Below, piece after piece: positions 24-9,363 of a stretch of DNA of 9,363 nt. Position 1 is the first letter of the stretch. Each line of letters starts with the position of its first letter. The DNA is from an uncultured beta proteobacterium (GTDB lineage Bacteria; Pseudomonadota; Gammaproteobacteria; Burkholderiales; SG8-39), in NCBI GenBank assembly GCA_902826155.1, contig CADEDU010000045.1:27918-37280 (forward strand), written 5' to 3'. The notes below the pieces were generated by a model. It did not search any database and had not been told where the DNA came from. It saw only the letters and a list, made by a program, of their open reading frames with translations. The translations under genes and the position numbers were made by a program.

Positions 24-1061
24 ATGAAAACGGTCGGACACGTCCACTTCGTCGGCAGCGTACCGATGTCCGATGCGCGCGCGGTGATGAAGACGCTCGG
101 TGAACGGTTTCGCGCCACGCTCAGGCGCATTCCCGATGGTGAGACCGGCGATCGCATCAACTGGCTGCAGTTCCAGGAGCAGGTGTTTGCTCGCACGCCG
201 CAGCTCGAAGCCGTCGCAGGGGACTTCGACTGGCGCAACGCCACCGCCAAGCGGCCGGCCACCACGCAGTTTCGGTTGCGCCAAGGCATGGCGGTAACCG
301 CGCGCGACCTCGGGCAACTCGGTTACGCGAGCAGCGCGCTCGCGTCGTATCGCGATTTCGCCGCGCTGCAAAGCACCGGGTCGATTGCGGCCAACGCGCG
401 CTTTCTGGTGGCGATGCCCTCGCCCTACAACGTGATCTCGTGGGGCATCGCCAACGAATCGAAGACGCAGGTCGAGATCGCCTACGAAGCGCGCGTGCTC
501 GAGGAGCTGGACGAGATCTGCGCCGCTGTCCCGCATGCGAAGCTGGCGATCCAGTGGGACTGCGCGCACGACATGCAGGCGTTCGAAGGCGCGCGCACGC
601 CGTGGTTCTCACCGGCCAAGGCCGGCATCGTCGAGCGTCTGGCGCGCATCGGCAATCGCGTGCCGGCCGAGATCGAGCTCGGCTATCACTTGTGCTACGG
701 CAGCTTCGGCGGACGCCACTTCGTCGAACCGAAGGACGGCACTGCGATGGTGGAGATCACCAACGCGGTGCTCGCAGCGATCGGGCGCACCGTGGAATTC
801 ATGCACATGCCGGTGCCGATCGAGCGCGATGACGATGCGTTCTTCGCGCCGTTCAGCGCGCTCCGGCTACGGCCCGAAACCGAGCTGTATCTGGGCCTGA
901 TTCACGACGCCGACGGCGTCGCGGGCTCGCAGCGACGCATCACCGCCGCGCGGCGCTACGTGTCCGACTTCGGCATCGCCACCGAGTGCGGCTTCGGGCG
1001 ACGACCCGCCGAGACGCTGTCGCCGCTGATCGAACTGCACGAGCAGCTCGTGCGAGGCTGA
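24..1061 (+). CDS. MetE/UROD-like family protein of unknown substrate (345 aa)
   Basis: The start is the ATG at 24, supported by GAGAGG at 9-14 with 9-base spacing. The protein looks cytoplasmic: no signal peptide or membrane segment. Near the N terminus it has HVHFVGSVP (residues 6-14) and RRIPDGETGDR (34-44). Later motifs are IQWDC (176-180), YHLCYGSFGG (221-230) and ECGFGRR (321-327). The H222-x-C224 pair followed about 100 residues later by C322 resembles the zinc site of cobalamin-independent methionine synthase (H-x-C in an IHTHMC-like motif, then a C in a DCG-like motif). This suggests a TIM-barrel protein of the MetE/uroporphyrinogen-decarboxylase superfamily that binds zinc and may activate a thiol for methyl transfer. 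At 345 residues it matches one MetE catalytic domain, without the duplicated N-terminal half. Substrate and partner are unknown. The gene stands alone at the window's left edge and converges with the dehydrogenase. Fold assignment is fairly sure; function is not. Confidence 0.8.
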   Translation: MKTVGHVHFVGSVPMSDARAVMKTLGERFRATLRRIPDGETGDRINWLQFQEQVFARTPQLEAVAGDFDWRNATAKRPATTQFRLRQGMAVTARDLGQLGYASSALASYRDFAALQSTGSIAANARFLVAMPSPYNVISWGIANESKTQVEIAYEARVLEELDEICAAVPHAKLAIQWDCAHDMQAFEGARTPWFSPAKAGIVERLARIGNRVPAEIELGYHLCYGSFGGRHFVEPKDGTAMVEITNAVLAAIGRTVEFMHMPVPIERDDDAFFAPFSALRLRPETELYLGLIHDADGVAGSQRRITAARRYVSDFGIATECGFGRRPAETLSPLIELHEQLVRG

Positions 1062-2710: not shown

Positions 2711-2809
2711 GCTGCCCTTCGGTGGCGCGGCGCGGGGGATCGGTCATGCGACGGACGGGCGTGCGGGTTACGATCGGCGGGTTGCCCGAAGCAGCACGAC
2801 AAAGCGAGG

Positions 2810-3415
2810 ATGAAAAAAGCGACGAAGAAAGCAGCGACGCAGAGCCTGCTGTGGTGTGTATTGGCTGCCGCCTTCGCCGTGGCGCCGCTCACCGGCTGTG
2901 CATCGGGCGCCGATCCCATGGACAAGTCTCCCGAGAGCTTCAAGCTGCAGGACCGATCGCTGCAACGCATCGACCGCAAGGAGATGCAACCGATCGATCG
3001 TGCGAGTCTGCTGGCGCGCGAACGCGAAGTGGCCAGCACCCAGGCTCGGCCCGGTCCGACGCGGTTCGCCGTGAGCGAGGAGGTGGCGTTCACGCTGGAT
3101 AACGCCGGCACCTGGCACGACGTGCCCAATGGACGGGTGTGGCGGCTGTTGATCCGTGCACCGCAGGCGCTCAGCATCAATCTGAATTTCTCGCGCTTCG
3201 ATCTGCCCGAAGGCGCGAAGCTGTGGCTCTACGATCCGGCACGCAAGCTGATTCAAGGACCGTACACCGCGCGCGATCGCAGTCCGCGCGGGCGACTCGC
3301 CACCCCGATCATCGAGGGCGAGGAGCTGGTGGTGGAGCTGTTCACGCCTGCCGGTGCGACAAAGCCGACGGTCGAGATCGGCGCGGTGAACAAGGCCTTT
3401 CGAACATTGAATTGA
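2810..3415 (+). CDS. Lipoprotein made of a free-standing lysyl-endopeptidase prodomain (201 aa)
   Basis: The N terminus has Lys residues, a hydrophobic stretch and the lipobox LTGC, giving lipidated Cys30 and a mature start CASGAD. With Ala at +2, outer-membrane sorting is expected. From about residue 40 to 200 it aligns with only one gap to the prodomain of the protease encoded next door (residues about 39-199): roughly 92 identities in 161 columns by hand count. Shared stretches include NAGTWHDV, FDLPEGAKLW, YTARDRS and GRLATPIIEG. It ends (RTLN) at the point where the protease's mature catalytic domain begins, so it contains no catalytic residues. The protease follows after 30 bases, so the two are very likely co-transcribed. 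The ATG is the only sensible start; a GAGG directly abuts it, so initiation may be weak. Possible roles are folding the protease in trans, inhibiting it, or protecting the cell; none is proven. A decayed duplicate is less likely because the frame is intact and the signal peptide class differs. Confidence 0.85.
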   Translation: MKKATKKAATQSLLWCVLAAAFAVAPLTGCASGADPMDKSPESFKLQDRSLQRIDRKEMQPIDRASLLAREREVASTQARPGPTRFAVSEEVAFTLDNAGTWHDVPNGRVWRLLIRAPQALSINLNFSRFDLPEGAKLWLYDPARKLIQGPYTARDRSPRGRLATPIIEGEELVVELFTPAGATKPTVEIGAVNKAFRTLN

Positions 3416-3445
3416 TAAGGTGAATCGAGAAGGGGGTATCGCGTG

Positions 3446-5158
3446 ATGACAACACCAACAAGAACAACCATGACTCTGACAACCCGAACGCTGTTGGGGC
3501 TGTGCGCGGCGGCGAGCCTGCTTGTGCCGGCACTCGCCTTCGCCAAGACCGGCGAGGTGCCCGAGAGCTTCAAGATGGCCGATCGCTGGCTCGAGCACGT
3601 TGATCGCCGCGTGGTCGCGCAGGTCGATCGCGCGTTGCTGCTCGCCCAGGATCGCCAGCTCGAGAAGGCGCAGCGCACGCAACCGGCACCGGCGCGTTTC
3701 GCGGCCGGCGAGGCCGTCGCGATGACCCCGACGAATGCGGGCACCTGGCACGACGTGGCCGACGGTCGAATGTGGCGCTTGCGTGTGCATGCCCCCGAGG
3801 CGATGAGCCTCAACCTCATCTTCACGCAATTCGATCTGCCCGAGGGCGCGAAGCTGTGGATCTACGACGCCGCCGGTCGCCGCGTGGAGGGGGCATACAC
3901 CGCGCGCGATCGTAGCCATCACGGGCGGCTCGCCACGCCGATCATCGAAGGCGATGAGGTCATCGTCGAGCTGTTCATGCCGCGCGGTGCGGCTGCTCCC
4001 GCGTTGACGCTGGGCAGCATCAATAAGGGCTACCGCAGCCTGGAGAAGGCCGGCACCTGCAACAACGACGTGGTGTGCCCCGAGGGCAATGCCTGGCGCG
4101 ATCAGATTCGCTCCGTGGCCCGGTACACCATCAGCGGCCAGTTCGTGTGCACCGGCCAGTTGATGAACAACACCGCGCAGAACGGCGCGCCGTACTTCCT
4201 GAGCGCCAACCATTGCGGAGTGACGGCGAACACCGACGACACCGTGGTCGTTTACTGGAACTTCCAGGCGGCAACCTGCGGGGCGCAAAGCGGCGGCAGT
4301 CTCGCCCAGAATCAAAGCGGCTCGACGCTGCGTGCGACCAGCACCGCGAGCGACTTCACGCTGATGGAGCTCGCGGCGCGTCCGGATGCAGCGTTCAACG
4401 TGTACTACGCCGGTTGGGACGCGCGCGGCACTGCGCCGAGCACGTCGGTGAGCATCCATCACCCCTCGGGCGACGAGAAGTCGATCTCGTTCAACAACAA
4501 CGCCGTGACAAGCACAGCATCCGGCAGCGCGGCGGTCAACGCATCAGCGGCGTTCTGGCGTGTCGATGCCTGGGAGGATGGCACCACCGAAGGCGGATCG
4601 TCGGGCGCGTGCCTGTGGGATGCCACTTCGAAGCGCTGCGTCGGTCAACTGTTCGGCGGCACCGCGGCGTGTACGGCGCCCGCCGATCCTGATTGGTTCG
4701 GCAAGCTGAGTGCGAGTTTCACCGGCGGCGGCACCTCGGCGTCACGGTTGCGCGACTGGCTCGATCCAGGCAATAGCGGCGCGCTCGCATTGGACGGGAC
4801 TTCGAGTCCAAGTGGTACGGGTGGCGGCGGTGGAGCCGGTGGTGGCACGCCAGCGGGCGACAGCGGTGGTGGGGGTGGAGGCGGCGGCTGCTTCATCGCC
4901 ACGGCGGCGTTCGGCACCGCGATGGCCGACGAGGTGCGTCACCTGCGCGCCTTCCGCGATCAATACCTGCTGACGAACGACTGGGGTCGATCCTTTGTCG
5001 ACTGGTACTACCGCACCAGCCCGCCGCTCGCCGACTACTTGCGCGAGCGCGATGGCCTGCGCGCGGTGGTGCGTGCGGCGCTGCAGCCGCTGATCGGACT
5101 GGCCAAGCTGATCGTGAGCCAGGAACACGTGCAGGCGCAGACGGCCGCGCGGCCCTAG
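3446..5158 (+). CDS. Secreted lysyl-endopeptidase-like serine protease with CFI-box C-terminal domain (570 aa)
   Basis: This is a preproprotease of the trypsin-like S1 fold, related to Achromobacter protease I and Lysobacter lysyl endopeptidase, which cut after Lys. Numbered from the ATG at 3446: signal peptide 1-33 (ends ALAFA), prodomain about 34-199, catalytic domain about 200-450, Gly-rich linker about 456-481, and a C-terminal domain starting CFIATAAFG (Cys482). The triad is H256 (SANHC), D303 (ASDFTL) and S386 (EGGSSGA). D416 in DWFGK aligns with the Asp giving Lys specificity in protease I. Cys205, 211, 235, 257, 278 and 409 match the three conserved disulfides; Cys389 and Cys398 are extra. 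Maturation by a cut after Lys201, just before AGTC, fits self-processing. AGGGGG at 3431-3436 serves either the ATG at 3446 or the GTG at 3443; an ATG at 3470 would also keep the signal peptide. It is encoded 30 bases after its prodomain-like lipoprotein. Family and catalytic assignments are strong; exact specificity is inferred. Confidence 0.92.
   Translation: MTTPTRTTMTLTTRTLLGLCAAASLLVPALAFAKTGEVPESFKMADRWLEHVDRRVVAQVDRALLLAQDRQLEKAQRTQPAPARFAAGEAVAMTPTNAGTWHDVADGRMWRLRVHAPEAMSLNLIFTQFDLPEGAKLWIYDAAGRRVEGAYTARDRSHHGRLATPIIEGDEVIVELFMPRGAAAPALTLGSINKGYRSLEKAGTCNNDVVCPEGNAWRDQIRSVARYTISGQFVCTGQLMNNTAQNGAPYFLSANHCGVTANTDDTVVVYWNFQAATCGAQSGGSLAQNQSGSTLRATSTASDFTLMELAARPDAAFNVYYAGWDARGTAPSTSVSIHHPSGDEKSISFNNNAVTSTASGSAAVNASAAFWRVDAWEDGTTEGGSSGACLWDATSKRCVGQLFGGTAACTAPADPDWFGKLSASFTGGGTSASRLRDWLDPGNSGALALDGTSSPSGTGGGGGAGGGTPAGDSGGGGGGGGCFIATAAFGTAMADEVRHLRAFRDQYLLTNDWGRSFVDWYYRTSPPLADYLRERDGLRAVVRAALQPLIGLAKLIVSQEHVQAQTAARP
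4806..4892 (+). repeat. G-rich tract encoding the polyglycine linker
   Basis: A low-complexity GGT/GGC run encodes a Ser/Gly/Thr-rich linker ending in eight Gly residues and then Cys. It joins the catalytic domain to the C-terminal CFI-box domain. Such tracts are prone to slippage, so linker length may vary among strains. Confidence 0.7.
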
Positions 5159-5360: not shown

Positions 5361-6353
5361 ATGAACAATCATCGTCGTCGGCTCGTTTCCACCTTGATGG
5401 CTTGCGGTGCGCTCGGCACCGCTGTGCATGGCGCGCCGGTGCTGGCGCAGGCCTGGCCGAGCAAACCGGTCACGATCATCGTGTCGTTTCCGCCGGGTGG
5501 CGATACCGACGCGCTCGCGCGCGTGTTCGCCGAGAAGCTCACGCCGCGCATCGGCCAGCAGGTCGTGGTCGAAAATCGCACCGGCGCGAGCGGCACGATC
5601 GGAAATTCGTTCGTCGCCAAGGCGGCGCCTGACGGGCACACGCTGCTGTTCACGCCGAACACCTTCTCGACCGCACCGCTCGTGCTCAAGCCCGGTACCG
5701 GTGCGGCGTACGACGTGCTCAACGACTTCGCGCCCATCATCCAGGTCGGCACGCAATCGTTGTTCGTGGTCGCCACGACCGCCAGCGGTGTGGGCAGCAT
5801 GAAGGATCTGGTCGGTGCGGCGAAGGCCGGCAAGATCACCTCGTACGCGAGTCCCGGCAGCGGCTCGCCGATGCACATCCTGGGCGAGTTGTTCAATAAG
5901 TCGGCCGGCGTGAAGCTGCAGCAGGTGCCGTATCGCGGCAGCGGCCCGGCGATCAATGATCTGGTCGGTGGCCACATCCCCATGATGTACACCACGCTCG
6001 GTCCGGTCGCGCCGCACATCGCCGCAGGCAAGCTGCGCAATCTGGCGGTGGCCGACGCGAAGCGCTCACCGCTCGCGCCTGACGTGCCGACGCTCGCCGA
6101 ACTTGGTTTCCGTGATGCCGAAGTGCCGGCGTGGCAGGGCTTCATGGCGCCCAAAGGGACGCGCCCCGAGGTCATCAAGGCGATCAACGGGCACGTCAAC
6201 GAGATCCTCAAGATGCCCGACGTGGTGCAGCGCATGACCACGCTCGCGTTGATCCCCTCCGGCGGAGAACCAGAAGTACTGGGCAAGCGCAACGCGGAGG
6301 ACCACGCACGCTACGGCAAGGTGATCAAGGAATTCGGCATCCAGGCGGACTGA
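5361..6353 (+). CDS. Bug/TctC-family periplasmic solute-binding protein (330 aa)
   Basis: This is a tripartite tricarboxylate transporter type binding protein, predicted to capture a carboxylated solute in the periplasm. It has an Arg-rich n-region (NNHRRR), a hydrophobic core and a cleavage site near PVLAQ (residues 26-30), giving a mature start close to AWPSKPVTIIV. Family hallmarks are FPPGG (43-47), VVVENRTGASG (68-78), PYRGSGP (190-196) and a C-terminal WQGFMAPKGT segment. Length is normal for the family. It is the first gene after the promoter and operator at 5222-5291, 122 bases ahead of the ferredoxin. No TctA/TctB membrane genes are seen here, so it is an orphan Bug protein, as is common in Burkholderiales. 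Ligand unknown; some Bug proteins act as sensors rather than transport components. Confidence 0.93.
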   Translation: MNNHRRRLVSTLMACGALGTAVHGAPVLAQAWPSKPVTIIVSFPPGGDTDALARVFAEKLTPRIGQQVVVENRTGASGTIGNSFVAKAAPDGHTLLFTPNTFSTAPLVLKPGTGAAYDVLNDFAPIIQVGTQSLFVVATTASGVGSMKDLVGAAKAGKITSYASPGSGSPMHILGELFNKSAGVKLQQVPYRGSGPAINDLVGGHIPMMYTTLGPVAPHIAAGKLRNLAVADAKRSPLAPDVPTLAELGFRDAEVPAWQGFMAPKGTRPEVIKAINGHVNEILKMPDVVQRMTTLALIPSGGEPEVLGKRNAEDHARYGKVIKEFGIQAD

Positions 6354-6365
6354 TATGAACGCTCT

Positions 6366-6385
6366 CCCTCCCCCCGCCCTTGCCC
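6366..6385 (-). other. G-quadruplex-forming motif
   Basis: The minus strand reads GGGCAAGGGCGGGGGGAGGG: four runs of three or more G with loops CAA, C and A. This is a canonical quadruplex pattern with very short loops. It lies just after the first Bug stop codon, within the 122-base gap before the ferredoxin, which holds no other gene. The plus strand is correspondingly C-rich and is followed by a purine-rich stretch at 6411-6425. Any role in termination or expression balance is speculative. Confidence 0.5.
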
Positions 6386-6475
6386 TTCTCGCGCCACCCA
6401 CGTGGCTAGAGGAGGAGGGAGCCGAGCTTGACTCGCGCTGCGGATCAGCGCTCGAACTGCAAAGGAGTCCATCGC

Positions 6476-6787
6476 ATGTCCGGTACCTGGCATGAAGTCG
6501 CGACCGCCGACGGTGTCACCGAAGACGGCCCGCTCGGCGTGAAAGTCGGCGACAAGGAGATCGGGCTGTTCCGGCTCGGCGACAAGCTCTATGCGCTCGA
6601 GGATGTCTGTCCGCATGCATACGCGCTGCTATCGAGCGGATTCATCGACGGCGAGACGGTGGAGTGCCCGCTGCATCAGGCGTGCTTCCACATTCCCACC
6701 GGCAAGTGCACCAATCCGCCGGCCGAGCGCGACGTCGCGGTGTATCCGGTGAAGGTCGAAGGCAACAAGGTGTTCGTGCAGGTTTGA
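6476..6787 (+). CDS. Rieske [2Fe-2S] ferredoxin (103 aa)
   Basis: This is a small electron-transfer protein of the kind that passes electrons from a reductase to the terminal oxygenase of Rieske non-heme iron systems. The cluster ligands are C45 and H47 in VCPHA and C64 and H67 in ECPLHQ, with 16 residues between H47 and C64. Length is typical of single-domain dioxygenase ferredoxins, and there is no signal peptide, so it is cytoplasmic. The start at 6476 is fixed by AAAGGAG (6461-6467) with 8-base spacing; an in-frame start at 6428 has no comparable site and adds non-family residues. The natural partner is the Rieske oxygenase at 8363, separated by two genes. A NirD-like or other Rieske role is possible but less likely in this context. 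Confidence 0.93.
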   Translation: MSGTWHEVATADGVTEDGPLGVKVGDKEIGLFRLGDKLYALEDVCPHAYALLSSGFIDGETVECPLHQACFHIPTGKCTNPPAERDVAVYPVKVEGNKVFVQV

Positions 6788-6862
6788 TCGTCGGCGCCCC
6801 GCTCGCGCCGAACCCACCACCCAGCGAAATCCAGCCAACCCAGCCAGAGGAGGCCGCTCGCC

Positions 6863-7231
6863 ATGGCCGAACGAGGACTGACCCGGGCGCACATGCCCAC
6901 CGCGAACACCGAAGGGGTGATCGCCGATTTCAATCCGTATCTCGAGGCGTATCGCAATCCGCGACGCAGTCCGAACGCCGGCAGTGGCCAGATCTTCCAG
7001 AAGAGCGAGCGCGATCTCATCACCTGGCAGACGCGGCCCGAGATCCCCGGCAACTACGAGTTGAACCTGGCCTCGGCGCTCGAGCAGATTTTCGCTCAGC
7101 GCATCTACGAACTGCCCGAGATCGTTGCCGCGCTCAATCGAGAGGGCATGCGTACGCCCGACGATCAAGCCTGGACCGAAGCCAACTTCCAATCGACGAT
7201 GCGTGAATTGGGCAAGCTCGCATTCGGTTGA
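6863..7231 (+). CDS. Small recombinase-like helix-turn-helix domain protein (122 aa)
   Basis: The start at 6863 follows AGAGGAGG (6846-6853). The N-terminal half (about 1-60) is polar and has no recognised domain. The C-terminal half contains LPEIVAALNREGMRTPDDQAW (residues 84-104 area) followed by a further helix, which closely resembles the helix-turn-helix of the 'recombinase' domain of large serine recombinases (IVxxLNxxGxxTPxGxxW). There is no resolvase catalytic domain or catalytic Ser region, so it is not a recombinase. It lies 75 bases after the ferredoxin and 77 bases before the second Bug gene (start 7309), all in one direction. It could be a local DNA-binding regulator, but the conserved acidic/aromatic N-terminal part and its place among enzyme genes would also fit an accessory subunit. 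Domain resemblance is from memory; function is unknown. Confidence 0.75.
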   Translation: MAERGLTRAHMPTANTEGVIADFNPYLEAYRNPRRSPNAGSGQIFQKSERDLITWQTRPEIPGNYELNLASALEQIFAQRIYELPEIVAALNREGMRTPDDQAWTEANFQSTMRELGKLAFG

Positions 7232-7297
7232 GCGTTTGCCACGCCCGGCCGATGGTGCCGCGCCGCCGATGATCACTCCTTTGCAATGATGAATTCA

Positions 7298-7302
7298 TGA
7301 GG
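7298..7302 (+). promoter_or_regulatory. Ribosome binding site deciding the second Bug gene start
   Basis: TGAGG lies 6 bases ahead of the ATG at 7309. The upstream in-frame ATG at 7297 overlaps this site and has no Shine-Dalgarno of its own, so 7309 is preferred. Confidence 0.5.
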
Positions 7303-7308
7303 TTTCAC

Positions 7309-8286
7309 ATGCTTTGTCGCCTGATGTTCCGTCACTCGATCGCCGCTCTCGCGCTGATCGCGCTCGCACCGCTTGCCTTGGCGCAGGGTTTTCCCAACAA
7401 GCCGATCAAGATCATCGTGCCGTTTCCGCCGGGCGGTTCGGCCGATCTGGTGGCGCGCTTGGTCGGCCAGCGCATGACCGACGACATCGGCCAGCCGGTA
7501 GTGGTGGAGAACAAACCCGGCGCCGACACCATCATCGCGATGGAGTTCGTGGCCAAGTCGGTGGCCGACGGCTACACCATCGGCTACGTCATCGGCTCAG
7601 CGCTGACGATGAACCCGACGCTGTATTCCAAGCTGCCGTACGACGCGGCCAAGGACTACGTTTCGCTCACCCACATCGCCAACGTGCCGCTGGCCATCGC
7701 GGTGCACCCGTCGGTGACCGCGACCAACGCCAAGGAGTTCGCCGACTTCATCCGCGCCAATCCGGGCAAGGTGTTCTACGCCAACGGCAACATCATCTCC
7801 AAGGTCGCCACCGAATCGTTCCAGCGCGCGGCCGGTGCGCCAGGGGCAATGGTGGAAGTGGCCTATCGCGGCAGCGCGCCGAGCCTGCAGGACTTGCTGC
7901 GCGGCACCGTGCAGATGTCGGTCGATCCGGTGATCGGCGTGATGCCGTACGTGCGCGACGGCAAGCTCAAGGTGATCGCGCTCACCGACAGCCGGCGCGC
8001 GCAGGCTTTCCCCGATATTCCGACGGTGGCCGAGAGCGGTATTCCCGGTTTCGCGTTCAACAACTGGCACGGCATGGTGCTGCCCGCCGGTACGCCGCGC
8101 GAGATCGTGACGAGACTGCACGCAGCGATCGTCAAGGCGGCGCGTCATCCCGATGTCGCCCCGAAAGTGCTGCAGTTGGGTGTGGAGATCGTGGCGAGCA
8201 CGCCCGAAGAGATGGCGAGCCGCGTCAACTCCGAGCGCGCCCACTGGGCCAAAGCGTTGCCGGAGATGAACATCAAAATGCAGTAG
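7309..8286 (+). CDS. Second Bug/TctC-family periplasmic solute-binding protein (325 aa)
   Basis: The signal peptide has a Leu/Ala-rich core ending APLALA, with cleavage after Ala25 giving QGFPNKPIKIIV. Hallmarks are FPPGG (39-43), VVVENKPGAD and VAYRGSAPS, followed by a normal C-terminal lobe (FNNWHGMVLPAGTP). It is only distantly similar to the other Bug protein in this cluster, so the pair is not a recent duplication and probably binds different ligands. In the segment that usually reads like Y-A-S-x-G-x-G-S before the second lobe, it has YANGNIISKVATESF, a departure that may alter the ligand pocket. It is encoded between the small helix-turn-helix protein and the oxygenase. An upstream ATG at 7297 would add four residues. 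No permease genes are seen. Confidence 0.92.
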   Translation: MLCRLMFRHSIAALALIALAPLALAQGFPNKPIKIIVPFPPGGSADLVARLVGQRMTDDIGQPVVVENKPGADTIIAMEFVAKSVADGYTIGYVIGSALTMNPTLYSKLPYDAAKDYVSLTHIANVPLAIAVHPSVTATNAKEFADFIRANPGKVFYANGNIISKVATESFQRAAGAPGAMVEVAYRGSAPSLQDLLRGTVQMSVDPVIGVMPYVRDGKLKVIALTDSRRAQAFPDIPTVAESGIPGFAFNNWHGMVLPAGTPREIVTRLHAAIVKAARHPDVAPKVLQLGVEIVASTPEEMASRVNSERAHWAKALPEMNIKMQ

Positions 8287-8303
8287 ATCCACGCGCCTCA
8301 CTG

Positions 8304-8344
8304 CCGCCTCGAACCCGCCTCCAACCGCCTCCAACCGCATCCAT
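8304..8344 (+). repeat. Four short C-rich tandem repeats
   Basis: CCGCCTCGAAC, CCGCCTCCAA, CCGCCTCCAA and CCGCATCCAT run in tandem in the 76-base gap before the oxygenase. The tract is C-rich and G-poor on the transcribed strand, like Rho-loading sites, but no function can be shown. Confidence 0.55.
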
Positions 8345-8362
8345 CGACAAGGACCTTCGATC

Positions 8363-9363
8363 ATGGCCGACCCGCAAGCTGTCGAGCGATTGATGAACCG
8401 CGGACTGCTCAACCAGTGGTATCCGGTGCTGCCGAGCTGGGCGGTGGCGGGCGCGCCGGTGGGCATTACGCGCCTGTCGGAAAACCTGGTGCTGTGGCGC
8501 GATGACTCCGGCGCGATCCACGCGATCGAAGATCGCTGTCCGCATCGCGGCGCCCGGCTGTCGCTGGGCTGGAACCTCGGCGATCGGCTCGCATGCTGGT
8601 ATCACGGCATCGAGGTCGACGGTACCGGCACGGTGCGCACGGTGCCCGCGGTCAATGCCTGTCCGCTCGAAGGCCAGCAGTGCGTCAAGCGCTATCCGGT
8701 GAAGGAAGTGCGCGGCGGCATCTTCGTCTACTTCGGCGATGCGCTGCATCAGGAACCCTGCGAGCTGAAACTGCCCGATGAGCTGGGGCGTGAAGACGAG
8801 TACGGCGCGATCCTGTGCTTCGCCAAATGGCAGTGCAATTACCGTTACGCGATCGATAACGTCATGGACCCGATGCATGGCGCCTATCTGCATGCGCTGT
8901 CGCACTCGATGGCCTCGGGCGACAAGACGGCCACGATGCAGGTGAAGAAGACGGCAACCGGGCTGACGTTCGAGAAGACCACGCAGCGCGACGTGAACTT
9001 CGACTGGGTGGAATTCGGCGAGTCCGGTGCGACGTGGCTGCGCCTGGCGATTCCTTATCGCCCCAATGCTGGACCGGGCGGCAACTTCGGCATTCTCGGT
9101 TTCGTCACGCCGGTCGACGAAAACAACTGCTGCGTGTTCTTCTGGCGCAATCGCAAGTGTTCGGGCTGGGTGCGCGACGTATGGCAGTTCATGTACCGCA
9201 CACGGCTCGAGGGCTTGCACTGGGCGGTGCTCGAGCAGGATCGCTTCGTGCTCGAACACATGGCGCCCGATGCGCGCGCGAAGGAATTTCTCTATCAACA
9301 CGACACGGGGCTCGCGCGCGTGCGGCGGGTCATGCAGAAAGCCGCCGAGTCGCAACTCGATGC
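8363..9363 (+). CDS. Rieske non-heme iron oxygenase, large (alpha) subunit, 3' end missing
   Basis: The reading frame is open from the ATG at 8363 to the last base of the window (333 full codons) with no stop, so the C terminus is outside. AAGGA at 8349-8353 (9-base spacing) supports the start. The N-terminal Rieske domain has C59-P-H61-R-G-A and C78-W-Y-H81-G, the [2Fe-2S] ligands. The catalytic domain has DNVMDPMHGAYLH, giving D169, H172 and H177 in the D-x2-H-x4-H pattern that binds mononuclear iron and links to the neighbouring Rieske centre. D293 in LEQDRF is the likely third, carboxylate ligand. The shape is closer to the phthalate/vanillate/dicamba-type oxygenases than to naphthalene dioxygenase; this is inferred from motif spacing. 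Electrons would come from the ferredoxin at 6476. Substrate unknown, perhaps an aromatic acid or ether; ring dihydroxylation and demethylation are both possible. Confidence 0.93.
   Translation, partial: MADPQAVERLMNRGLLNQWYPVLPSWAVAGAPVGITRLSENLVLWRDDSGAIHAIEDRCPHRGARLSLGWNLGDRLACWYHGIEVDGTGTVRTVPAVNACPLEGQQCVKRYPVKEVRGGIFVYFGDALHQEPCELKLPDELGREDEYGAILCFAKWQCNYRYAIDNVMDPMHGAYLHALSHSMASGDKTATMQVKKTATGLTFEKTTQRDVNFDWVEFGESGATWLRLAIPYRPNAGPGGNFGILGFVTPVDENNCCVFFWRNRKCSGWVRDVWQFMYRTRLEGLHWAVLEQDRFVLEHMAPDARAKEFLYQHDTGLARVRRVMQKAAESQLD

What the first reader, a model, noticed from the sequence alone, without database searches (positions are those of the whole stretch)
2810..3415. Outer-membrane lipoprotein that is a stand-alone copy of the neighbouring protease's prodomain
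Seen: the 201-residue product aligns to the prodomain of the adjacent protease at about 57% identity over about 160 residues with one gap. It stops at the prodomain/catalytic boundary and carries a lipobox (LTGC) instead of the protease's ordinary signal peptide. The two genes are 30 bases apart. Known: prodomains of many secreted serine proteases act as folding catalysts and tight inhibitors. Inference: this may be a dedicated membrane-tethered chaperone, inhibitor or immunity partner that folds the protease during export or protects the producing cell. I do not know of a described lysyl endopeptidase system with this arrangement.
Basis: partly seen in the sequence, partly recalled or inferred. 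Interest (0 to 1): 0.78.

Follow-up and report, generated by a model that had tools for sequence, protein, structure and literature searches.

The report
Membrane-tethered copy of a protease's safety catch
Next to the gene for a secreted lysine-cutting protease, this bacterium carries a second gene that makes only the protease's removable inhibitory front part, apparently fixed to a membrane; relatives keep the same extra gene, so it is most likely a self-protection device, although no one has tested that.

Summary
ORF 2810-3415 (201 aa) is a full-length prodomain homologue of the adjacent lysyl endopeptidase (92/161 identical), with an L-T-G-C lipobox, stopping one residue before the protease's predicted autoprocessing lysine. 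It is not a decaying duplicate: stand-alone relatives at 99, 75, 68 and 59% exist (P0001-P0004). The window's protein and P0002-P0004 form one clade (100/99), sister to the prodomains of four CFI-box-CTERM proteases (100/97), best read as one duplication before they split. All keep GCASG and end in LN; their domains are 65-78% identical, close to the prodomains' 69-81%. One relative's lipoprotein (P0002) and protease (P0008) both list a contig of exactly 6,962 bp. The only solved structure matching the lipoprotein by sequence is the propeptide chain of 9omd, an entry that also holds lysyl endopeptidase (weak E-values). The cut propeptide of P. aeruginosa protease IV inhibits the enzyme when added separately (PMC5493658, passages). 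Best reading: an envelope-tethered trans-acting inhibitor that protects the producer; the protease keeps its own prodomain, which argues against an obligatory foldase. Binding, inhibition, lipidation and location are untested. New variant of a known kind (compare Spi-SpeB, Bacteroides Bti).

The parts
2810..3415 (+). Stand-alone prodomain lipoprotein gene, 201 aa
2810..2896 (+). Predicted lipoprotein (signal peptidase II) signal, residues 1-29
   Evidence: lipobox LTG|C by the simple pattern only, GCASG invariant in four sequences; no signal-peptide predictor was available
2897..2929 (+). Predicted lipidated Cys30 and short tether (CASGADPMDKS)
   Evidence: lipidation and location inferred
2930..3412 (+). 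Prodomain homologue (residues 41-201), predicted beta-sandwich with a helix before it, CUB-like
   Evidence: AlphaFold2 pLDDT above 90 over nearly all of the domain; structure matches
3428..3436 (+). Shine-Dalgarno-like AGAAGGGGG ahead of the protease start
   Evidence: read in the sequence
3443..5158 (+). Lysyl endopeptidase precursor, 571 aa from GTG 3443 (570 from ATG 3446; 562 from ATG 3470)
3560..4045 (+). The protease's own prodomain (residues 40-201)
4046..4048 (+). Lys202, predicted P1 of autoprocessing (LEK|AGTC); absent from the lipoprotein
   Evidence: read in the sequence; alignment; cleavage itself inferred
4049..4828 (+). Catalytic domain, Achromobacter protease I type (residues 203-462)
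   Evidence: H257 and D304 invariant and S387 nearly so in A5; their role as the triad is inferred from motif context
4889..5095 (+). CFI-box-CTERM domain NF041770 (residues 483-551) after a Gly-rich linker

Best explanation
The lipoprotein arose by duplication of the 5' (signal + prodomain) part of a lysyl endopeptidase gene. It exchanged an ordinary signal peptide for a lipoprotein signal and was kept beside the protease. It is probably exported, lipidated at Cys30 and anchored by a short tether, most likely at the periplasmic face of the outer membrane. There it binds mature or prematurely activated protease as the cleaved propeptide would, and blocks it until the protease leaves the cell: a dedicated, non-secreted second safety catch (immunity protein). 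Shown: homology, gene order, retention, single clade, constraint, conserved lipobox region, missing P1 lysine, retained prodomain core. From literature on a distant homologue: the cut propeptide of P. aeruginosa protease IV binds and inhibits in trans. Inferred: co-transcription, lipidation, location, binding and inhibition.
For: Relatives P0001-P0004 are all stand-alone with the same ends. Lipoprotein clade 100/99, sister to CFI-box protease prodomains 100/97, joint clade 97/92 (rooted on the other rows). Lipoprotein domains 65-78% identical, prodomains 69-81%, catalytic domains 84-91%. Of 62 columns conserved in at least 90% of 14 other proteases, 44 are kept in all four lipoproteins and 44 in all four cognate prodomains. 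dN 0.31 against dS 1.05 between the two window copies. Fold predicted with pLDDT above 90 over nearly all of the domain. The protease keeps a full prodomain of its own. The lipoprotein gene comes first. The only PDB sequence match of the lipoprotein is the propeptide chain of 9omd, an entry that also holds lysyl endopeptidase, 8 chains of each. The propeptide binds and inhibits protease IV when added separately (PMC5493658, passages).
Against: No binding or inhibition evidence for this pair; no complex model. 9omd_I matches weakly (E 0.0037 and 0.0057 with profiles, 0.076 with the single sequence). The lipoprotein lacks the P1 lysine that a product-like inhibitor would leave in the active site, and is not poor in lysine (6, 4, 5, 4 in the four lipoprotein domains; 4, 5, 5, 5 in the prodomains), so it shows no obvious resistance to the enzyme. 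Adjacency is directly seen only in this window. The lipoprotein and protease trees are not clearly congruent (P0003 groups with P0004, whereas P0009 groups with P0007/P0008; true pairing unknown).
Confidence: 0.55

Rival explanations
1. Trans-acting steric chaperone: the tethered prodomain folds the catalytic domain in the periplasm or re-folds failed molecules, working like the lipase foldases (Lif).
For: Prodomains of subtilases are folding catalysts (PMC6993865 introduction, passage). Core prodomain residues are retained. Membrane anchoring recalls Lif (recalled).
Against: The protease keeps its own complete, conserved prodomain, so an external foldase is not needed. The 14 more distant proteases P0011-P0024 have the prodomain in cis; no intact stand-alone lipoprotein was recognised outside the window's clade, P0060 and P0069 being doubtful cases.
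Confidence: 0.15
2. Surface latch: the lipoprotein holds mature protease at the cell envelope as a latent complex, together with the protease's CFI-box C-terminus, and releases it on a signal such as another protease.
For: CFI-box-CTERM is found in 4 of 23 proteases, those being the window's, P0008, P0009 and P0010 (motif), which are sister to the lipoproteins. Protease IV is kept latent by its propeptide until LasB degrades it (PMC5493658, passages).
Against: 3 of the 19 proteases without the CFI motif end before the catalytic domain does and cannot tell. The function of the CFI box is not known from any call (no occurrence of the term in the 15 papers listed of 997). Surface exposure of the lipoprotein is unknown; the tether is 11 residues in three of four members.
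Confidence: 0.13
3. Neofunctionalised binding protein: the CUB-like domain now binds another ligand and has nothing to do with the protease.
For: The structure matches shown are mostly proteins with CUB domains (partly recalled), general binding modules. Eight fixed differences from the cognate prodomains; at two (P143, P151) the lipoproteins keep the residue of most other proteases, at E71, P159 and F197 they depart from it.
Against: Adjacency, upstream position, equal retention of the prodomain core (44 of 62 columns in both).
Confidence: 0.1
4. Decaying duplicate without function.
For: Few relatives found: four stand-alone lipoproteins, one of them a near copy, in a search of 5.8 billion proteins that reaches only relatives sharing exact words.
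Against: No stop or frameshift, dN/dS about 0.3 to its paralogue, retained in four distinct sequences with invariant lipobox region and C-terminus.
Confidence: 0.03

Closest known systems
Propeptide of Pseudomonas aeruginosa protease IV (PrpL); PMC5493658 (passages), PMC8549743 (abstract and outline); PDB 9omd
   Same: Same enzyme family. The cut propeptide binds and inhibits the mature enzyme when added as a separate chain. The 9omd propeptide chain is the only solved-structure sequence match of the lipoprotein; the species of 9omd was not shown by any search.
   Different: Made in cis as part of the protease, not a separate gene, not known to be lipidated; leaves with the protease and is degraded outside.
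SpeB-Spi of Streptococcus pyogenes
   Same: Separate gene beside the protease encoding a propeptide analogue that inhibits it (PMC2873492 and PMC3462683, passages only).
   Different: Cysteine (C10) protease, Gram-positive; described there as acting in the cytoplasm; not a lipoprotein and another fold (recalled).
Bfi/Bti inhibitors of Bacteroides C10 proteases
   Same: Small predicted inhibitors, several of them predicted lipoproteins of the outer membrane, encoded within 35 bp of exported proteases and co-transcribed with them in several cases (PMC3462683, PMC2873492, passages).
   Different: Staphostatin-like; the B. fragilis ones show no significant identity to known propeptides or Spi; cysteine proteases.
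Metzincin and TIMP-like lipoprotein pair of Listeria (PMC8235301, abstract start in a search listing)
   Same: A secreted protease and a lipoprotein resembling its inhibitor, encoded as a pair.
   Different: Metalloprotease; the lipoprotein resembles TIMP, not a prodomain; phage origin.
Stand-alone subtilisin propeptides (MEROPS I9: Pleurotus, yeast and Arabidopsis inhibitors; SUB1-ProM, TgMIC5)
   Same: Free-standing propeptide mimics that inhibit the enzyme; SUB1-ProM lies beside subtilisin-like genes (PMC6993865, abstract and passages).
   Different: Eukaryotic, subtilisin family, other fold; described there as possible convergent mimics, whereas here the tree points to a duplication.
Lipase-specific foldases (Lif/LipB), recalled
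   Same: Membrane-anchored partner encoded beside a secreted enzyme.
   Different: Lif is not a copy of a lipase prodomain and is anchored in the inner membrane; its lipases lack a prodomain of their own (all recalled).

Membership tests
Lysyl endopeptidase prodomain family (precomputed Pfam PF27052.1) | Sequence homology over the whole prodomain | tested here: met
   (57% to the neighbour); PF27052.1 is precomputed on P0001-P0004 and on the window's protease P0007; the model itself is not in the held Pfam copy, so its name is unknown to me
Lysyl endopeptidase prodomain family (precomputed Pfam PF27052.1) | Fused to a catalytic domain, as in the proteases (not a requirement of the domain itself) | tested here: not met
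   ORF stops at residue 201 before the processing lysine
Bacterial lipoprotein | Lipobox with Cys after a hydrophobic signal | tested here: inconclusive
   simple pattern met in the window, P0001, P0002 and P0004, not in P0003; strict pattern (recalled) met in none of the five; GCASG invariant; a weak NCBIfam lipoprotein match over residues 17-47, E 0.11, under the cut-off
Bacterial lipoprotein | Lipidation and outer-membrane location | not testable with these tools
   Ala at +2 only
Propeptide-like protease inhibitor (Spi / I9 type, functional class) | Separate gene resembling the protease's propeptide | tested here: met
Propeptide-like protease inhibitor (Spi / I9 type, functional class) | Inhibits the protease | not testable with these tools
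   no assay; the homologous free propeptide inhibits protease IV (PMC5493658, passages)
Steric foldase (Lif type, functional class) | Client lacks a prodomain of its own (recalled) | tested here: not met
   protease residues 40-201
CUB domain | CUB beta-sandwich fold | tested here: inconclusive

The most novel reading that the evidence does not exclude
A two-part envelope system: a lysyl endopeptidase with a CFI-box C-terminal sorting-like domain is held latent at the cell envelope by a lipid-anchored duplicate of its own prodomain, so that the producer keeps a tethered, releasable protease. This would be a surface-latency mechanism built by prodomain duplication; no example was seen in the rows listed by the paper searches made here.
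Probability: 0.13. Interest if true: 0.72.

Novelty: new variant of a known kind. Interest (0 to 1): 0.52.

Why it matters
It gives a clean natural case in which a protease's cis-acting prodomain seems to have been copied, cut loose and fixed to a membrane, with phylogenetic evidence for the duplication. Because the protease keeps its own prodomain, folding and protection can be separated genetically. The enzyme class (Lys-C type) is widely used (recalled), and a natural trans inhibitor might help in its production. It also gives a handle on what the uncharacterised CFI-box C-terminus does.

Tried and rejected
Decaying duplicate: rejected on retention and constraint. A neutral simulation of the 160 aligned codons left 122, 58, 33 and 15 of 500 runs stop-free at 0.3, 0.5, 0.8 and 1.2 changes per site, with mean identities of 62, 47, 32 and 21%; the missing stop alone is therefore weak evidence.

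Is a stand-alone prodomain common? In the phylum of the L001 genome (a Bacteroidales MAG), 45 of 395 sampled genomes have a match, 65 matches in all (at most 8 candidates per genome were scored). 62 of the 65 lie in open frames of 289 aa or more. The three shorter ones are a contig end (195 aa), one with an internal TGA (127 aa), and one of two neighbouring pieces (118 aa; the other is in a 537-aa frame with a TGA). No intact stand-alone gene was seen there, but that is not the window's group; a betaproteobacterial survey was not possible because no centre genome was available.

Other stand-alone candidates: the profile search gave 58 proteins, 52 of them new, from the 7,998 candidates that could be scored. 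Five (P0025, P0027, P0030, P0031, P0038) stop at the prodomain boundary with ordinary-looking signal peptides. They lie among protease prodomains (P0030/31/38 group at 95/84) and may be broken or contig-end genes. P0060 is a distant stand-alone with an atypical P-L-A-C; unresolved. P0069 has V-S-G-C at residues 33-36 and Pro at -4, like the window's, but its domain match breaks off midway; unresolved. Other lipobox-pattern hits (P0038, P0052, P0055, P0057) occur in proteins that I judge to have ordinary or uncertain signals. For the 45-row tree, 21 of the 52 new hits were added and 31 left out, P0069 among the latter.

Full protease structure: poor (pLDDT 54), so no prodomain-enzyme interface was read. 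9omd_I is not among the 50 rows shown in either structure search; whether that library holds it is unknown. A viral contig scan found no relative. The protease had only distant or partial matches in 11 plasmid records. Lysine avoidance: not seen. Tree congruence: not informative with four rows and unknown pairing.

Full report
What is there. The window (9,363 bp) carries, on the + strand, a 201-codon gene (2810-3415) followed by a lysyl endopeptidase gene (GTG 3443 or ATG 3446 to 5158). The first product matches the prodomain of the second at 92/161 identities with one gap. It begins with a basic, hydrophobic signal ending L-T-G-C and ends at Asn201. The protease at that point reads L-E-K-A-G-T-C, and Lys202 is the likely autoprocessing site (inference from the enzyme's Lys specificity). 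The catalytic part matches solved Achromobacter protease I / lysyl endopeptidase. The C-terminus carries NCBIfam NF041770, CFI-box-CTERM. The two genes share a reading frame, with a Shine-Dalgarno-like AGAAGGGGG before the second and no terminator-like site between them; no sigma-70-like promoter was found.

Is it a lipoprotein? The simple lipobox fits the window, P0001, P0002 and P0004 but not P0003, and a stricter pattern (recalled) fits none of the five because of proline at -4. Against that, signal peptides differ freely in length and sequence while G-C-A-S-G is invariant in the four distinct sequences. I take lipidation as likely, not shown. P0004 has a longer tether, rich in Ala, Gly and Pro.

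Is the gene kept by selection? A search of 5.8 billion proteins with the lipoprotein returned six proteins. Four are stand-alone (P0001-P0004, at 99, 75, 68 and 59%); P0005 runs on into a protease-like stretch and P0006 breaks off before the domain ends. A search with the protease's prodomain region returned 18 proteins, the window's own and 17 others. On a tree of 24 prodomain sequences (P0001 left out as a near copy), rooted on the 16 more distant rows, the four distinct lipoproteins are one clade (100/99), the four closest proteases another (100/97), and the two together a third (97/92). This is best read as one duplication before these lineages split. Adding 21 of the 52 further hits left both clades intact (100/99 and 100/98). 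Within the sets, lipoprotein domains are 65-78% identical, prodomains 69-81% and catalytic domains 84-91%. Of 62 columns conserved in at least 90% of 14 other proteases, 44 are unchanged in all four lipoproteins and 44 in all four cognate prodomains: the lipoprotein has kept as much of the prodomain core as the real prodomain. Eight positions are fixed differences; at two of them (P143, P151) the lipoproteins keep the residue of most other proteases and the cognate prodomains have changed. Between the two copies in the window dN is 0.31 and dS 1.05. All four lipoproteins end in L-N. A decaying duplicate would not look like this.

Is the pair kept? The window shows it. For P0003 (contig 1,467 bp), P0004 (1,158), P0009 (4,249) and P0010 (2,481) linkage is unknown.

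Mechanism. By sequence, the only solved structure that matches the lipoprotein is chain I of 9omd, named lysyl endopeptidase propeptide, in an entry that also holds lysyl endopeptidase, eight chains of each (E 0.0037 and 0.0057 with profiles, 0.076 with the single sequence). The matches are weak but fall on the shared core. No paper naming 9omd was found in the held library. For protease IV of P. aeruginosa, the cut propeptide co-purifies with the enzyme, and purified propeptide binds and inhibits it; the authors call it a safety pin that may prevent damage to periplasmic proteins (PMC5493658, passages; PMC8549743, abstract). A tethered copy could do the same without leaving with the enzyme. 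The protease here keeps its own full prodomain, so a foldase is not required; that and the gene order (partner first) favour an immunity-like inhibitor. Against this, the lipoprotein lacks the P1 lysine and is not poor in lysine, and no binding has been shown.

A possible link to the CFI box. NF041770 was found in 4 of 23 proteases scanned. The motif is in the window's protease and P0008-P0010, the sister clade of the lipoproteins, and in none of the other 19, of which 3 end too early to tell. If that C-terminus keeps the protease at the envelope, a membrane-bound inhibitor in the same place would make sense. A paper search gave no occurrence of the term CFI-box in the 15 papers listed of 997. 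This is the basis of the more novel reading.

What is known. Separate genes for propeptide-like inhibitors of proteases are known: Spi beside SpeB, a propeptide analogue (PMC2873492, PMC3462683, passages); SUB1-ProM and the I9 proteins in eukaryotes (PMC6993865, abstract and passages). Inhibitor-like lipoproteins beside exported proteases are known in Bacteroides, where they resemble staphostatins, and a metzincin with a TIMP-like lipoprotein in Listeria (PMC8235301, abstract start in the listing). In the rows listed by the searches made (some searches listed only part of their hits, and 15 of 16) I saw no lysyl endopeptidase with a separate prodomain gene; the library holds open-licence papers only. 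Hence: a new variant of a known kind.

Limits. No whole genome is held for the window, the one genome-contig scan gave a single Bacteroidales hit, and the genome survey reached only that phylum. All functional statements are inference.

Noticed in passing
window 4889-5095: The protease ends in a CFI-box-CTERM domain after a Gly-rich linker; found in 4 of 23 related proteases, those in the sister clade of the lipoproteins. The domain's role is unknown to me.
   Followed up: partly
window 2930-3412: The lysyl endopeptidase prodomain has a predicted CUB-like beta-sandwich fold.
   Followed up: partly
proteins P0025, P0027, P0030, P0031, P0038, P0060, P0069: Further proteins, six of which stop at the prodomain boundary: five with ordinary-looking signal peptides, P0060 with an atypical P-L-A-C. 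P0069 has a V-S-G-C lipobox but breaks off mid-domain. They may be other kinds of stand-alone prodomain, or broken genes.
   Followed up: partly
L002 2731-6290 (Comamonas odontotermitis plasmid NZ_CP083452.1): Two trypsin-like peptidase genes in tandem sit between ruvA and ruvB.
   Followed up: no
window 5361-9361: Downstream cluster of two TctC receptors, a Rieske ferredoxin, an HTH_62 protein and a VanA-type Rieske oxygenase, probably aromatic catabolism.
   Followed up: no
window 24-1058: 345-aa protein without a Pfam or NCBIfam match.
   Followed up: no
window 2768-4462, - strand: A 564-aa open frame lies antisense to the lipoprotein and the first part of the protease; probably a shadow of GC-rich coding sequence.
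   Followed up: no
   Followed up: no
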